A stretch of DNA of 49,310 bases from positions 1 through 49,310 of the forward strand of contig SLDT01000008.1 of NCBI GenBank assembly GCA_007125125.1, given 5' to 3'. How positions within the stretch are numbered: position 1 is the first letter of the stretch; every line of letters begins with the position of its first letter. Origin of the DNA: Gemmatimonadota bacterium (GTDB lineage Bacteria; Gemmatimonadota; Gemmatimonadetes; Longimicrobiales; Gaopeijiaceae). Shown piece after piece: positions 3-5,218 of this stretch. Below the pieces are notes generated by a model. That model did not search any database. It saw only the letters and a program-made list of their open reading frames with translations, and was not told where the DNA came from. Made by a program: the position numbers and the translations under genes.

Positions 3-935
3 ACGGAAGAAGGCACCCCGGGCACCGCCGGGGGTGCCGCCGGAGGCCGCAACCCTCTCCCCTTCCCCTTCCCCGGGATGCCCGGGGGCGCCGGGGCGGC
101 GGGGCTGGCCGGTGCAGCAGGCCTCGCCGCCGCCGCGGGGGCCTCGCCCGAGCCGCGGCACGTGGCGTGGGCGCGGAGCCTCCTCGAGGGGCTCCCCGAC
201 GAGCTTCGCACGGAGATCCGGACCCCGGCTGGCGCCCTCGCGACGACCCTCGGGCTCCTCCTGAACGAGGGTGCGGCGCGCGACCCCCAGCTCGCGGCGA
301 TCGAGGAGGCCCTCGGAGCCGAGGCCGCCCGGCGTGCGGACGACCTCGGTCGAAGAGTGGCGGCGCTCGGCCCGCAGGCCCGGCTCCCCCTGCTCGAGCT
401 TGCCCTCCCCGCGCTCCGGGAGCTCGAGGCCGACGGCCTCGCCGCACTCCGCCGCCTCGTCCCTGCCCTGATCCGCGAGGATGGCGAGGTGCGCACCTTC
501 GACTTCGCCCTCTACCACGTCCTGCGCCGGAACGTCTTCGAGGCGGGGGGCGACCGCCGCCCCGGAGGCCAGCTCTCGGCCTCGCGGCTCCGCGACGACG
601 TCCGGCTCCTCGTCTCGGCGGTCGCACGGGCCGGCTCGGGGGGCGACGAGGGTGCGCGCGAAGCGTTCGCCGCCGCACTCGCGGTACTCGCCGCCGAAGA
701 CGGCTTCGGGGAGGCGGTCCGCGGCTGGCAGCTCGCCGACCCCTCGGCGATCGGCCTCGGCCGGGTCGACGAGGCACTCGAGCGAGTCGAGCGCGCCCCA
801 CCTCTCGTGCGCCGGGCGATCCTGAGGGCGGGCGAGGCCTCCGTGCTCGCCGACGGGGTCGTCGAGGCGGGCGAGGTCGAGATGCTGAGGGCCGTGGCCG
901 AGGCCCTCGATGCCCCCATGCCACCCATGACCTGA
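3..935 (+). CDS. C-terminal part of a probable M48-type metallopeptidase with TerB-like tail (5' truncated)
   Basis: The reading frame is open from the first bases of the window, so the start and any N-terminal domain lie upstream. The visible 310 residues begin with a Gly/Ala/Pro-rich linker. A helical region follows, with a segment of the type L-I-R-E-D-G-E-V-R-T-F-D-F-A-L around residues 155-170. From family knowledge, that acid-rich helical pattern resembles the TerB-like tail that follows the membrane-bound M48 (HtpX/Ste24-like) protease domain in many bacteria. The HExxH zinc motif is not in view, so the protease assignment is inference. It is followed after 7 bp by a membrane-protein gene and looks like the upstream member of the operon running to 5218. 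It could instead be a stand-alone TerB-like or unknown helical protein. Confidence 0.5.
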   Translation, partial: TEEGTPGTAGGAAGGRNPLPFPFPGMPGGAGAAGLAGAAGLAAAAGASPEPRHVAWARSLLEGLPDELRTEIRTPAGALATTLGLLLNEGAARDPQLAAIEEALGAEAARRADDLGRRVAALGPQARLPLLELALPALRELEADGLAALRRLVPALIREDGEVRTFDFALYHVLRRNVFEAGGDRRPGGQLSASRLRDDVRLLVSAVARAGSGGDEGAREAFAAALAVLAAEDGFGEAVRGWQLADPSAIGLGRVDEALERVERAPPLVRRAILRAGEASVLADGVVEAGEVEMLRAVAEALDAPMPPMT

Positions 936-942
936 CCGCACG

Positions 943-1803
943 ATGTTCGGCCTCGAGGAAGACGAGACGCTGATCCTCTTTCTCTCGGCGGGGCTTGCAC
1001 TCGCCGGGGTCGTCTGGCACTACCTCGGGCAGCTCCACGCCCTGAGCTTCCGGCGAAACCCCGCCCCGGGAGTCATCCGGGTCGCCGTGTTCGTCGCGAT
1101 GGCCTGGATCGCCTTCGTCCTCTGGCGATACGCCGACCCCTCGGTCACGGGCCCCTACGTCTTCTTCTACCTCGTGATGGGGTTTGCGGCCGTGAAGGTG
1201 GCCGGGCAGGGAACGGCGGCGAAGTTCGGCGCCCGCACCCGCGTCGACGTGGGGGAGCGCCGGAACCTTGCGATGGCGGTCCTGATCGGCGCCTTCATCG
1301 TCTCGAGCGGCCTCATCTTCGGCGGAAGCCTCTGGGGCGAGGCCGACCCCGCGGGCGACGGCGAGGGCGGATGGTGGATCCCCCTCGGGTTCTTTCTCCT
1401 CGGGTGGGGGTGCCTCGCGGCCCTCTTTGCCCTCTTTCTCCTGCGCGAGGACGAGGGTTTCATGGCCCGCCTGCGCCGGGAGCGGGAGATGGATGACGCG
1501 GTTGCGGCTGCCTTCTTCCTGGTGTCATCCGCGATCATCCTGACCGATGCGGTGGCAGGCGACTTCTGGGGATGGGGCCACGGGCTCTTCACCTTCGGGA
1601 CCCTGGCGGGGATGCTCGTCGCGCACGAGGCCTTCGCCTCGCTCGTGCGGGTCCCGCGGGCGGCCTCCTCGGGCGGGCTTGGAGGGGACGCGCCTGCCTC
1701 GAAAGATCGGGTGCCCTGGGAGTGGCTCGTCTACCTCGGGCTCGCGGCCTTTGCCTGGGGAGTGAACCGTTGGCTAGACTTCGTCTTCGGGGTCCGAGGA
1801 TGA
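943..1803 (+). CDS. Polytopic membrane protein, DUF350/UPF0719-like
   Basis: This 286-residue protein has about seven or eight hydrophobic segments. Two similar stretches, near residues 105-130 and 180-205, each start with a short charged patch and a small-residue helix rich in Ala, Ser and Gly. That internal duplication resembles the YjfL/DUF350 (UPF0719) fold. The resemblance is by eye only. The neighbour supports it: in E. coli yjfL sits in the same operon as yjfC, a glutathionylspermidine-synthase-like ATP-grasp gene, and here an ATP-grasp of that class follows with a 4-bp ATGA overlap. The likely place is the inner membrane. The substrate or role is unknown; a membrane-stress or small-molecule channel function is speculation. 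Confidence 0.5.
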   Translation: MFGLEEDETLILFLSAGLALAGVVWHYLGQLHALSFRRNPAPGVIRVAVFVAMAWIAFVLWRYADPSVTGPYVFFYLVMGFAAVKVAGQGTAAKFGARTRVDVGERRNLAMAVLIGAFIVSSGLIFGGSLWGEADPAGDGEGGWWIPLGFFLLGWGCLAALFALFLLREDEGFMARLRREREMDDAVAAAFFLVSSAIILTDAVAGDFWGWGHGLFTFGTLAGMLVAHEAFASLVRVPRAASSGGLGGDAPASKDRVPWEWLVYLGLAAFAWGVNRWLDFVFGVRG

Positions 1804-2993
1804 TCGCGGCTCGGCCCTGGGGGCTCGAGCCCGCCGAGGAGGACGAGCTCTTCCGCGCGCTCCGCTTCACCTACCACAAGTGGGACACCTTTGCCTGCGG
1901 GAACCGGCTGGTGCTGACGGAGTCGCTCGTGGTCGACGAGGCGCTCCACCGGGAGATCGTGGAGGCGGTCGAGGGGCTCCACGGGGCGCTGGCCCGCTGG
2001 GAAGGGCGCATCGCGCGAGATGCGGCGGCGCTCGAGCGGCTCGCGATCCCGCCCCTCCTGCACCCCCTGATCGCGGCCGACGAGAGTCCGCCGCTGCAGT
2101 GCGCCCGCTACGACCTCTTTCCGACGCCGGACGGGCGGCTCATGGTCTCGGAGTTCAACGAGGACGTCCCGGGCGGGTTCAACGAGGCGCACGGGATCCC
2201 GGAACTCATGGGCGATCCCGGTGCGGGGTTCCGATGGGAGGCGGGGCTCAGGGAGCGCTTCCTCCCGGCCTTTTCGGAGGTGGGGCCGGTGGCGCTGCTC
2301 TATGCGACGGCGTACTCGGAAGACCTGCAGCACATGCTGATCCTCGAGTGGTGGCTGCGCGAGGCGGGGCACCGGACGGTGCTGGGGTCGCCCGCGCACC
2401 TGGGGGGGTGGCGGCGTCCGAAGGTGCTGGGTGAGCCGATCGAGGCGGCCTTTCGCTTCTATCCGGGGGAGTGGATGGCGCGGCTCCCGAACCTCGGCGC
2501 CTGGCGGCGGCATGGGGCGCGGCTCCCGATGATGAACCCGATCCGGCACCTGATCCGGCAGAGCAAGCTGGTGTTCTCGCTCTGGCGGGATGACGAGGGG
2601 GTCCCGGACGAAGACCGGGCTCTGATCGAGCGGCACTGTCCGCGGACGGCGCCCTTCTCGGAGGAGTGGGTCGAGGCGCTGAGGGCCGAGCCGGAGCGCT
2701 GGGTGCTGAAGGAGGCCTTCGGGCGCATGGGGGACTCGGTGGTGATGGGGAACCTGGTGACACCGAAGGAGTGGGAGGCGACGCTGGCCGAGGCGCGGAA
2801 GCGGCCGGGCGCGTGGCTCGTGCAGGAACGGTTCGAGGTGGCTCCGGTCCCCTTCGAGGGGGGCGCGATGTACCCGGCGCTCGGGGCCTACGTGGTCAAT
2901 GGTCGCTTCGCGGGCTACTACAGCCGGGTGGCGCCGCGTCCTCTCATCACGCACGAGGCCTATCATGTGGCGACGCTGGTCCGAGCGGCTTGA
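1800..2993 (+). CDS. Glutathionylspermidine-synthase-like ATP-grasp amide ligase
   Basis: The 397-residue product has the plan of the GSP-synthase ATP-grasp family. It has an N-terminal pre-ATP-grasp region, and around residues 105-130 a stretch containing Y-D-L-F, then S-E-F-N-E-D-V-P-G-G-F-N-E, which corresponds to the metal- and ATP-binding E-x-N-x-D-x-P-G type motif. A later W-V-L-K-E-A-F-G-R-M-G-D segment carries the nucleotide-binding lysine. The end reads I-T-H-E-A-Y-H-V-A-T-L, typical for this group. Family members form an amide bond between a carboxylate and an amine using ATP, but the E. coli YjfC-type branch has no proven substrate. The start is the ATG in the ATGA overlap with the membrane-protein gene; a longer in-frame reading upstream is a shadow of that gene. 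The next gene starts inside this one. Confidence 0.82.
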   Translation: MIAARPWGLEPAEEDELFRALRFTYHKWDTFACGNRLVLTESLVVDEALHREIVEAVEGLHGALARWEGRIARDAAALERLAIPPLLHPLIAADESPPLQCARYDLFPTPDGRLMVSEFNEDVPGGFNEAHGIPELMGDPGAGFRWEAGLRERFLPAFSEVGPVALLYATAYSEDLQHMLILEWWLREAGHRTVLGSPAHLGGWRRPKVLGEPIEAAFRFYPGEWMARLPNLGAWRRHGARLPMMNPIRHLIRQSKLVFSLWRDDEGVPDEDRALIERHCPRTAPFSEEWVEALRAEPERWVLKEAFGRMGDSVVMGNLVTPKEWEATLAEARKRPGAWLVQERFEVAPVPFEGGAMYPALGAYVVNGRFAGYYSRVAPRPLITHEAYHVATLVRAA

Positions 2994-3885
2994 GTGGCTG
3001 GGGGCCCTGAGGCTCGGGCTCCCGACCTTCACGAAGGGGTGGCCGGTGGGGGAGCCCAATGCATCCGATGCAGAGGGGGGCCTCGGGTGGAAGAACTTCG
3101 CCTCGCCCGAACCCCTGTACCGGGCATGGGGCCCGCATCCGGAGGGGCCATGGGTGCCCTTCCACTGCGTGCCCCTCTTTGCGGCGCTCGACCGGACGAA
3201 GCCGGAGTGGATCGGGCCGCGGGGGCGGGTGCGGGTGCCCGAGCCGCTCTGGGGGAGCGGGGAGCCCTTCCCCCCGGCACCGAGGTGGCTCCGGCCGGGG
3301 ACGATGACGATCCTGGATGCGCCGGGGCGGCGGAGTGTGGAGGCCGCGGCATGGCTCGTGGTGTCGGGCGGGTGTCAGCCGGTGTGCACCTTCGACAACT
3401 GGCCGCACGAGAAGGGGGTGCTGAGGGTGGCCGATGTGCTGGCCGAGCTCCTTCACTGGGCTTCGGTCGTCTTCGCGGCGCGGGCGCGGCTCGAGGCGGA
3501 TGCCCCTCCGCTCTGGATCTGCGACAGTCGCCGCCTGGGCACGCGGACGGGACGGCCGGGAGAGTTCGACAACCGGTACTTCCTGGACGACTCGATTCTG
3601 CCGGGGCCGGGATTTCTGGCACGGAACGGGGTTGAACGGGTGGTCTACCTCCATGCGGAGGTGGCGAGCCCCCCGGTGTCGGACCTGGAGAACTACTTCG
3701 GGGACCTGCTGACGGCGGGGATCCCGGTGTTGCATCTTGGGCTGCCGGCGGGACCGGAGGCCAAGCCCGCAGTGCTGGTGGGCGATGCGCTCAGACGCCG
3801 GCGGCCCCCGAAGGGCTTCCGGCGGAGCGCGGCAGGGGGGTTCGGGACGACCGTTCCGGAGCCATCTTCAGGGAGCGGCGGATAG
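2965..3885 (+). CDS. Conserved-looking protein of unknown function, partner of the ATP-grasp ligase
   Basis: I do not recognise a named domain in this 306-residue protein. It is soluble, Trp- and Pro-rich, and has motif-like patches that look catalytic or ligand-binding: a C-x3-C-T-F-D-N-W-P-H segment near residue 135, C-D-S-R-R-L-G near 190, and F-D-N-R-Y-F-L-D-D near 205. The chosen ATG at 2965 overlaps the end of the ATP-grasp gene by 29 bp, which implies translational coupling. Reading from the alternative upstream start at 2899 would only lengthen that overlap. The tight coupling suggests it acts on the same substrate or product as the ligase, for example as a second subunit or processing enzyme; that is inference. 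Confidence 0.65.
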   Translation: MWRRWSERLEWLGALRLGLPTFTKGWPVGEPNASDAEGGLGWKNFASPEPLYRAWGPHPEGPWVPFHCVPLFAALDRTKPEWIGPRGRVRVPEPLWGSGEPFPPAPRWLRPGTMTILDAPGRRSVEAAAWLVVSGGCQPVCTFDNWPHEKGVLRVADVLAELLHWASVVFAARARLEADAPPLWICDSRRLGTRTGRPGEFDNRYFLDDSILPGPGFLARNGVERVVYLHAEVASPPVSDLENYFGDLLTAGIPVLHLGLPAGPEAKPAVLVGDALRRRRPPKGFRRSAAGGFGTTVPEPSSGSGG

Positions 3886-3968
3886 GAGGTCGGTATGGAG
3901 GAGCATGAACGGGGGGGCTTCCGGGTGCGGGGGGTGTGGGCGGGCCGGATTCGGGTGCCGGGGGTGCC

Positions 3969-4379
3969 ATGGACACGGATGCTCGCGAGCTGCTCGACGA
4001 CCCGCGGGCGATCACCCGGCCGGACCCCGCGCTCAACACCTACTACCTGATCTCCTCGCTCGCCGGGCTGATCTTCTTCCCGTTCATCTATGTGCCGCTC
4101 CTCCTGCGATACCGGACCCTTCGGTACCGGTTCGATGAGGCCGGAGTCGCCATGTCATGGGGACAGTTCAACCAGCGCGAGATCTACCTGACCTACCGCC
4201 GCATCCAGGACATCGAGGTGCGGCGAGGCCTTCTGCAGCGGTGGCTCGGGCTTGCGAACCTGCAGCTTCAGACGTCGTCGGGGGGTTCGGGTGCCGGGGG
4301 TGGGGGCGGCGCGGACGAGGCGCTCGCGCTCCTCCGGGAGATCCGCGACGAACTCCGGCTCCTGCGGGAGGCACGGTGA
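3969..4379 (+). CDS. Bacterial PH-domain (bPH2-type) membrane-associated protein, short
   Basis: The product is 136 residues from the ATG at 3969. Residues about 25-48 form one hydrophobic segment. After it comes a bPH2-like pattern: Y-R-F-D-E-A-G-V, then Y-R-R-I-Q-D-I-E-V-R-R-G-L-L-Q-R-W-L-G-L, which matches the R-I-Q-x-V-x-x-x-x-G-x-x-x-R-x-x-G core of YdbS-like proteins. A Gly-rich linker leads to an amphipathic tail with L-L-R-E-I-R-D-E, which the next protein also carries. The start is uncertain. A good Shine-Dalgarno (AGGAGGT at 3884-3890) precedes an ATG at 3895 in another frame, and a run of seven G at 3911-3917 could shift that start into this frame. The stop overlaps the next ATG. 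Confidence 0.7.
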   Translation: MDTDARELLDDPRAITRPDPALNTYYLISSLAGLIFFPFIYVPLLLRYRTLRYRFDEAGVAMSWGQFNQREIYLTYRRIQDIEVRRGLLQRWLGLANLQLQTSSGGSGAGGGGGADEALALLREIRDELRLLREAR

Positions 4380-5218
4380 TGGCGCCCGACGCACCCCCGA
4401 CCCGTGGTCCGGCGCCCGACCAGCCCGCCACCCGCGGATCGAGGGCCGGCTGGGTGGTGCTTCGTCGGGTGATGAAGGTGCCGGAGGATCCTCCTCAGCT
4501 ACCGCCCGGAAGGCACGAGTGGACCCGGAGCTTCCGGCCTTCCGACTCCTGGATGCGCTACCTCGTCGGGAAGCACCTCGTCGGGTGGGCAGCAGCGGCC
4601 TTGTTCGGGCTCGTATTCGTCGGATTCATCGCGTCAGCCTTCGTGGGTGACGGGGGGTCTCCGGTCGTGGCGGCGGTGATCATCGGGGCCATCGTCTCGA
4701 TCGCTGTGATCCTCTTCGCCTTCGGGCTCATGGCGATCCCGATCCGATTCGACACGACCTGGTACGTGATGACGGATCGGGCGCTTCGGCTCCGCTCAGG
4801 GGTGTGGACGATCCGCGAGACGACCGTGACCTTCGAGAACGTCCAGAATGTGCGGGTGAGACGAGGGCCGATCCAGCGGCTGCTCGGGATCGGTGACGTG
4901 ACCGTGGAGACCGCCGCGGTCGGATACAGCGACCCGAACCAGGGGATCACGCAGGCGAGCAGCGCGGTGATTGTCGGCGTCGACGACCCGAGCGGAATCC
5001 GCGACCGGATCGTCGATCGGATGCGGATGTCCCGTTCAGCCGGTCTCGGGGACGACCCGGACCCCGAACGCAGGAGGGGCCGTCGCGCCGGCGAGAGTCC
5101 GGGGGCGGGCGGCTCGGAGCCCTTCGGAACGCGTGTTTCCGCCGGCGGCGGGAGCTGGAGCCCGGAGCACCTCCAGCTCCTGCGCGAAATCCGCGACGAG
5201 GTGCAGGCGTTGCGTTGA
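4379..5218 (+). CDS. Bacterial PH-domain (bPH2/YdbS-like) membrane protein
   Basis: The 279-residue product has a disordered N-terminus, two hydrophobic helices around residues 65-85 and 95-120, and then a bPH2 domain. The domain's key stretch contains Y-V-M-T-D-R-A-L-R-L-R-S-G, then F-E-N-V-Q-N-V-R-V-R-R-G-P-I-Q-R-L-L-G-I-G-D-V. Such YdbS-type domains sit at the inner membrane; in Bacillus YdbS/YdbT they are linked to envelope stress. After a charged linker the protein ends in an amphipathic helix with L-L-R-E-I-R-D-E, the same motif as in the preceding gene. The ATG shares one base with the upstream stop (TGATG), so the pair is translationally coupled. An internal ATG at 4472 is an alternative start. 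Confidence 0.8.
   Translation: MAPDAPPTRGPAPDQPATRGSRAGWVVLRRVMKVPEDPPQLPPGRHEWTRSFRPSDSWMRYLVGKHLVGWAAAALFGLVFVGFIASAFVGDGGSPVVAAVIIGAIVSIAVILFAFGLMAIPIRFDTTWYVMTDRALRLRSGVWTIRETTVTFENVQNVRVRRGPIQRLLGIGDVTVETAAVGYSDPNQGITQASSAVIVGVDDPSGIRDRIVDRMRMSRSAGLGDDPDPERRRGRRAGESPGAGGSEPFGTRVSAGGGSWSPEHLQLLREIRDEVQALR

What the first reader, a model, noticed from the sequence alone, without database searches (positions are those of the whole stretch)
943..5218. ATP-grasp amide ligase operon with an unknown partner and PH-domain proteins
A DUF350-like membrane protein, a glutathionylspermidine-synthase-like ligase, an unrecognised 306-residue protein with Cys and Asp/Asn-rich motifs, and two PH proteins follow each other with overlaps of 1-29 bp or a short gap. 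The first pair recalls E. coli yjfL/yjfC. The third member, starting inside the ligase gene, may complete an undescribed peptide- or polyamine-modification system at the membrane.
Basis: partly seen in the sequence, partly recalled or inferred. Interest (0 to 1): 0.62.

Follow-up and report, generated by a model that had tools for sequence, protein, structure and literature searches.

The report
Shared protein tail beside amide ligases
Next to a bacterial enzyme of a kind that joins peptides to polyamines lies a protein of unknown family whose loose end carries a short tail, and the same kind of tail sits on otherwise unrelated proteins beside such enzymes in many bacteria, which suggests that the tail is what the enzyme modifies.

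Summary
The five genes are real and lie as described. The first three (DUF350-like membrane protein, GSP_synth-type ATP-grasp ligase, 306-residue protein) form a conserved cassette in Gemmatimonadota, Planctomycetota and the Myxococcota group. The two PH-domain genes do not belong to it. The 306 protein belongs to a family with no Pfam, NCBIfam or PDB match. In 282 Myxococcota-group genomes, 28 of the 31 with this family also hold the ligase (3.5 expected).

The new observation is the 306 protein's C-terminus: a disordered Gly/Ser-rich tail with a GGFG-type motif that almost always ends in Gly or Ser, the best conserved stretch in close relatives. Unrelated proteins beside such ligases carry the same kind of tail: E. 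coli YgiB and YjfM (DUF1190) beside YgiC and YjfC, and small proteins in Bacillus, Arthrobacter, cyanobacteria, Planctomycetota and Gemmatimonadota. Ligases without a tail partner are mostly other subtypes, including the glutathione enzyme Gss.

Best reading: the tail is the ligase's protein substrate, and its C-terminal carboxylate is amidated, probably by a polyamine. Recognition is well supported by comparison; the chemistry is inferred and untested. Searches of the held literature did not find this described.

The parts
943..1803 (+). DUF350-like multi-pass membrane protein (286 aa), first gene of the cassette
   Evidence: DUF350 18.6 bits, below cut-off 26; homologues above cut-off; confident helical model
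1800..2993 (+). GSP_synth-type circularly permuted ATP-grasp amide ligase (397 aa), relative of E. coli YgiC/YjfC and of the Gss synthetase domain
   Evidence: best PDB sequence match YjfC 7uk6; core residues R103 D105 E118 N120 E174 D175 K256 K304 R376 kept
2965..3885 (+). 306-aa partner protein: alpha/beta domain (about residues 111-262), variable linker, conserved C-terminal tail
   Evidence: (model pLDDT 88.4)
3817..3882 (+). C-terminal tail (residues 285-306), proposed ligase substrate; GGFG at residues 291-294 (bases 3835-3846), terminal Gly-Gly
   Evidence: mean pairwise identity tail 0.69, alpha/beta domain 0.51, linker 0.24 in 12 relatives; only ORF of 179 in the window with such an end

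Best explanation
The cassette is a protein-modifying relative of the E. coli YjfL-YjfM-YjfC and YgiB-YgiC pairs. The ATP-grasp ligase binds the flexible C-terminal tail of its neighbour (here the 306-aa protein; in Proteobacteria DUF1190 lipoproteins) through the G-x-aromatic-G motif. With ATP it activates the terminal Gly (or Ser) carboxylate and joins it to an amine, most likely spermidine or another polyamine, giving a protein with a positively charged C-terminal cap. The DUF350-like membrane protein is probably the membrane-side partner or receptor of the modified protein. Shown here: conservation, linkage, co-occurrence, sharing of the tail by unrelated bodies, and retention of the ligase's core residues. 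Inferred: that the tail is a substrate and not only a docking signal, the identity of the amine, and the membrane role.
For: (1) Tail conservation: in 12 relatives the tail is more conserved (0.69 mean pairwise identity) than the folded domain (0.51) or the linker (0.24), although it is predicted flexible (pLDDT 54-70). (2) Family-wide: 58 members with a stop-bounded C-terminus, collected by domain or protein match and not by tail, end in Gly (46) or Ser (10); 47 of 58 carry the strict motif in the last 45 residues, 53 of 58 a looser one. In 46 E. coli control genes 7 end in G/S and 0 have the motif. (3) Different bodies, same tail: E. coli YgiB and YjfM and neighbours in Vibrio, Rhizobium, Sulfitobacter, Pseudomonas, Arthrobacter, Acinetobacter, Asticcacaulis, Trichormus and Bacillus; bodies of the 306 family, DUF1190 (YgiB, YjfM) and the small proteins of L053-L061 do not connect by BLAST. 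(4) Automated test: tail in 27 of 91 ligase-adjacent ORFs against 5 of 372 other ORFs in the same loci, Fisher p 2e-16. (5) Of 60 surveyed ligase loci, 48 hold a 306-family or small tail protein locally; 3 more have the 306 gene elsewhere in the genome, with its tail. (6) Co-occurrence 28 of 31 genomes, 3.5 expected, p 5e-31. (7) Partner presence follows ligase subtype: aromatic residue at the position of Gss T446 in 51 of 51 with a partner, 1 of 9 without; bifunctional Gss (known substrate glutathione) and L081 have none. (8) Catalytic core kept, acidic pair E174/D175 kept, glutathione-side positions changed (roles of these residues recalled).
Against: No biochemical evidence. Terminal residues are not always Gly (Ser in 10 of 58; His in L068 and Phe in L107). 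L107 is a family member without the tail; L083 has a partner-type ligase with no partner found in the fetched locus. The motif is loose in the long forms. The tail could be a docking site while the true substrate is a free peptide or metabolite. Tail class and ligase clade coincide, so covariation of the substrate-side residues is confounded by descent. The position-446 rule was noticed after the fact. The domain's invariant Asp/Arg/Asn set suggests the partner may itself be an enzyme or binding protein.
Confidence: 0.5

Rival explanations
1. The tail is a docking or recruitment signal: the ligase binds it to sit beside its partner, but ligates a free peptide or small molecule to a polyamine, as Gss does with glutathione.
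For: NCBI annotates YgiC and YjfC as peptide--spermidine ligases; the 306 domain has its own invariant R190/D202/R204/D240 set and may be an enzyme that makes or uses the product.
Against: The terminal residue itself is restrained to Gly/Ser (56 of 58) and the last residues are conserved, which docking alone does not need; bodies change while the end stays.
Confidence: 0.25
2. The ligase adds an amino acid or peptide, not a polyamine, to the tail's C-terminus, in the manner of RimK or tubulin tyrosine ligase.
For: ATP-grasp ligases that extend protein C-termini are known (recalled); the position of Gss D610 varies among these ligases.
Against: The acidic pair at Gss 391/392, recalled as amine-side residues, is kept in most ligases with a partner and is E174/D175 here; the nearest characterised relatives are annotated as spermidine ligases.
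Confidence: 0.15
3. The tails are RGG-like nucleic-acid or surface-binding ends, and their linkage to the ligase reflects co-regulation in an envelope-stress operon.
For: RGGFG is a familiar RGG-box element (papers seen in the listing); related ligase operons can carry PspA genes (passage of PMC11237479).
Against: The motif is usually single and followed by a short end at the very C-terminus; many members lack Arg before it; the family and the ligase co-occur even where the genes are unlinked in the genome.
Confidence: 0.07
4. The neighbourhood is an ordinary gene row without a functional pair; the tail is low-complexity drift.
For: Gly/Ser-rich ends are common in high-GC genomes (general knowledge).
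Against: 5 of 372 non-adjacent ORFs in the same loci pass the tail test against 27 of 91 adjacent ones; the window itself has 1 of 179 ORFs with such an end, the 306 gene; cassette kept across phyla.
Confidence: 0.03

Closest known systems
E. coli YjfL-YjfM-YjfC (DUF350, DUF1190, peptide--spermidine ligase)
   Same: DUF350 membrane protein, GSP_synth-type ligase and a protein with a G-G-aromatic-G tail ending in Gly-Gly
   Different: Third protein is a DUF1190 protein, not the 306 family; gene order and accompanying genes (yjfI, pspA-like yjfJ, yjfK) differ; here the DUF350-like protein is about twice as long
E. coli YgiB-YgiC
   Same: Ligase beside a tailed protein (RGGFG ... MGG end)
   Different: No DUF350 gene beside it in the fetched stretch; DUF1190 body
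E. coli Gss, glutathionylspermidine synthetase/amidase
   Same: Same ligase fold family and core residues
   Different: Fused amidase, glutathione as peptide, no tailed neighbour; glutathione-side positions differ
PspA-associated operons with ATP-grasp, DUF350, DUF1190, DUF2491 (PMC11237479, one passage seen)
   Same: Ligase and DUF350 in an envelope-linked operon
   Different: No PspA-type protein among the six window proteins scanned; the passage does not mention a shared tail
SUMO-spermidine conjugation (PMC12270671, abstract and passages seen)
   Same: Spermidine joined to a protein's C-terminal Gly carboxylate
   Different: Done by E1/E2 enzymes in eukaryotes, not by an ATP-grasp ligase

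Membership tests
GSP_synth (PF03738) ligases | Profile match above the curated cut-off | tested here: met
   56.6 bits against 29.3
GSP_synth (PF03738) ligases | Catalytic core residues of the ATP-grasp synthetase | tested here: met
   R103 D105 E118 N120 K256 K304 R376 aligned with Gss R316 D318 E330 N332 K498 K533 R598 (roles recalled)
Bifunctional Gss | N-terminal amidase fused to the synthetase | tested here: not met
   397-aa protein with ligase match only
YgiC/YjfC-type peptide--spermidine ligase | Ligation of spermidine to a peptide | not testable with these tools
   Needs an enzyme assay
YgiC/YjfC-type peptide--spermidine ligase | Same clade of ligases | tested here: not met
   The window's ligase falls in a separate clade with the 306-linked ligases; YgiC and YjfC in the other main clade
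DUF350 (PF03994) | Profile match above cut-off | tested here: inconclusive
   Window protein 18.6 bits, cut-off 26; cassette homologues L013, L014, L062, L072, L094, L103 pass
DUF1190 (PF06693) | Profile match of the partner protein | tested here: not met
   No match for the 306-aa protein or any of the 41 aligned family members; YgiB and YjfM match
PEP-CTERM sorting signal | Hydrophobic helix after the PEP motif, then basic end | tested here: not met
   Only six residues (SSGSGG) follow PEP; no hydrophobic stretch
Known fold for the 306 domain | Clear match to a solved structure | tested here: inconclusive
   Foldseek best E 0.044, VIA-align Z at most 4.2

The most novel reading that the evidence does not exclude
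A widespread, undescribed bacterial protein modification: ATP-grasp ligases of the YgiC/YjfC type amidate the terminal Gly/Ser of a portable C-terminal tail (G-x-aromatic-G ... Gly-COOH) carried by otherwise unrelated partner proteins, capping them with a polyamine; the tail is a protein-substrate code that also identifies the unknown physiological substrates of E. coli YgiC and YjfC as YgiB and YjfM.
Probability: 0.4. Interest if true: 0.9.

Novelty: new variant of a known kind. Interest (0 to 1): 0.74.

Why it matters
YgiC and YjfC are annotated as peptide--spermidine ligases, but I found no natural peptide named for them in the held papers searched. A shared tail on the neighbouring proteins gives a concrete candidate substrate in E. 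coli K-12, testable with single-gene deletion strains and mass spectrometry. If right, it adds a C-terminal protein modification by polyamines in bacteria, gives a function to DUF1190, and names a protein family that no Pfam or NCBIfam model covers.

Tried and rejected
PH proteins as part of the system: rejected, no match beside the cassette in the other loci. Chance ORF: rejected. Known domain for the 306 protein: none by Pfam or NCBIfam on the 41 aligned members beyond scattered weak rows, none by sequence against PDB; structure comparison gave only generic alpha/beta rows (PTS IIB and ferrochelatase-like rows, Z about 4), so no fold is claimed. DUF350-like model: no clear structural match. 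Gene fusion as evidence: in L142 ligase and 306 domains lie in one frame, but the ligase part is incomplete and the contig ends there, so it is not used. Greedy gene calling misses many partners in GC-rich DNA; hand reading and profile search were used besides. Whole-genome test for other tailed proteins in the window's genome: not answered. Literature on the tail: nine searches showed no mention in their listings; Pederick 2023, Sui 2012 and the 2009 amidoligase paper were asked for and are not held, so absence from print is not shown.
Full report
What is there. The window is a 49,310-base contig of a 3.5-Mb genome; its nearest cassette relatives are Gemmatimonadota (titles). Pfam gives GSP_synth for the ligase and bPH_2 for the two PH proteins; the membrane protein is DUF350-like but under the cut-off, and the 306-aa protein has no family.

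The cassette. In the window's relatives the 306 gene is rare: the call's tally is 3 of 39 genomes counting the window's own and 2 of 298 in a phylum sample counting its own. A scan of genome contigs with an alignment of three 306 proteins gave 12 loci: Gemmatimonadota, Planctomycetes, Deltaproteobacteria, Bradymonadales and one short Trueperaceae contig. In 12 of 12 ligase sequence lies directly upstream (L016 aligns only over its last 63 residues), and in 10 of 12 the DUF350-like gene is also found; no PH gene was found in any of them. Three of the Gemmatimonadota contigs are the same as, or near-copies of, those found in the genome searches, so the 12 are not all additional to those.

The tail. 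Reading the C-termini showed the same end in all 12 complete members, the window's included (L019 is cut by its contig): after a variable linker comes RS-x-x-GGFG-x-x-hydrophobic-P-E/D-P-S-S ... G. Mean pairwise identity over 12 sequences is 0.69 in the tail, 0.51 in the alpha/beta domain and 0.24 in the linker. The AlphaFold2 model is confident for the body (mean pLDDT 88.4) and low for the tail. In a 41-sequence alignment of the wider family, tail glycines G292 and G294 are among the twelve invariant or nearly invariant columns.

The tail is not tied to one protein. E. coli YgiB and YjfM, DUF1190 proteins beside YgiC and YjfC, end in RGGFG ... MGG and RGGYG ... WGG. Of ten plasmid records with annotated ligase neighbours, chosen by me from 40 listed of 158 for variety, nine have such an end on an adjacent gene; the tenth, Azospirillum L120, has none and its ligase has lost core residues. 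Two unannotated plasmid loci (L124, L125) show one too. BLAST of bodies without tails puts the 306 family, DUF1190 and the small proteins in separate groups.

Survey. PF03738 searches gave 6 further Gemmatimonadota loci in 150 genomes, 24 places in 343 Planctomycetota-group genomes and 34 places in 282 Myxococcota-group genomes. I dropped the places already held (the window's own, G306, G307, G308) and merged two pieces of one gene, leaving 60 loci. A profile of the 306 domain finds a family member in 39 of 60, 7 of them on the opposite strand; 9 of 60 hold a small tailed protein (8 beside the ligase, L053 one ORF away); 12 hold neither. In 3 of those 12 (L089, L091, L103) the genome has a 306 gene on another contig, with its tail. 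So 51 of 60 have a partner somewhere in the genome. The small proteins were picked by their tails, so they do not count as a test; the 306 members were picked by domain or protein match and do.

Numbers on the tail. Of 58 306-family C-termini (two more frames that run off a contig were dropped), 46 end in Gly, 10 in Ser, one in His (L068, motif present) and one in Phe (L107, no tail); 47 have the strict motif and 53 a looser one; the five without it are L070, L071, L076, L077 and L107. Of all 80 tailed neighbours and family members listed, 78 end in G/S. In 46 genes of an E. coli control stretch, 7 end in G/S and none has the motif. An automatic comparison inside the 60 surveyed loci and ten cassette loci gives 27 of 91 adjacent ORFs against 5 of 372 others. 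In the window, 1 of 179 ORFs of at least 100 aa has such an end, the 306 gene.

Co-occurrence. With the domain profile, 31 of 282 Myxococcota-group genomes have the family; 28 of them are among the 32 with the ligase, 3.5 expected, hypergeometric p 5e-31. The profile was built from ligase-linked members, which favours finding such members. The three genomes without a ligase hit have the 306 gene at a contig end. Four genomes have a PF03738 hit without the family (G680, G835, G851, G882).

Ligase. The best sequence match in PDB is YjfC (7uk6). Core residues are kept in nearly all of 79 near-full ligases, and the acidic pair at Gss 391/392 is E174/D175 here; the glutathione-side positions S335, S337 and T441 of Gss are changed (residue roles recalled). 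The position of Gss T446 is Trp or Tyr in 51 of 51 ligases with a partner and in 1 of 9 without (a rule noticed after the fact). Those without include L081, a bifunctional Gss type, and a clade of six with other signatures. The midpoint-rooted tree has two main groups: one with YgiC, YjfC and Gss, one with the 306-linked ligases; tailed partners occur in both, with unrelated bodies.

Mechanism. GSP-type ligases activate a peptide's terminal carboxylate with ATP and join it to an amine (established for Gss, recalled). A partner whose loose end is a conserved short peptide with a free terminal Gly or Ser fits this chemistry as a protein-borne peptide substrate. The polyamine is inferred from the nearest annotated relatives and the kept acidic pair. 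Some long forms appear by eye to have twin-arginine or lipoprotein-like starts, and DUF1190 proteins are described as lipoproteins (PMC11237479, passage), so the cap may end up outside the cytoplasm; this was not tested.

Literature. A passage of PMC11237479 describes ligase, DUF350 and DUF1190 operons without mentioning tails. PMC12568646 and PMC10948618 cite Pederick 2023 (passages), which I could not read. PMC12270671 reports SUMO-spermidine conjugates at the C-terminal Gly (abstract and passages), a chemical precedent. PMC12506659 (passages) notes that YgiC lacks Gss activity. Nine searches showed no description of the tail.

Noticed in passing
window 3-935 (+), L005 and L006 upstream of the cassette: An ORF that matches the C-terminal part of an M48-type peptidase ORF with a TerB-like end precedes the cassette in the window and in two relatives; in L006 a LemA-like ORF precedes it (family names M48 and LemA recalled; TerB weak match).
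   Followed up: partly
window 3895-4050 (+): A 51-codon ORF with a good Shine-Dalgarno sequence (GGAGG) starts just after the 306 gene and overlaps the start of PH gene 1; the PH start at 3969 lacks an obvious one.
   Followed up: no
window 4320-4376 and 5165-5215: Both PH proteins end in a similar LLREIRDE segment, although only the PH domain is a known family.
   Followed up: no
L005 6453-7691, L006 7149-8228: In two relatives a gene on the other strand facing the end of the cassette encodes a protein with a CRNC...CPSCGQRK zinc-ribbon-like motif and hydrophobic stretches, in place of the PH genes.
   Followed up: no
L142 2-2668 (-): Ligase and 306 domain lie in one open frame with part of the ligase missing; fusion, decay or assembly error.
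   Followed up: partly
L117 2368-2874: Arthrobacter plasmid gene annotated as tRNA-dihydrouridine synthase is a 168-aa tailed protein with no Pfam match; the name looks wrong.
   Followed up: partly
L008: A 3.4-kb contig labelled Trueperaceae carries the cassette and groups with Gemmatimonadota ligases; likely a binning error.
   Followed up: no
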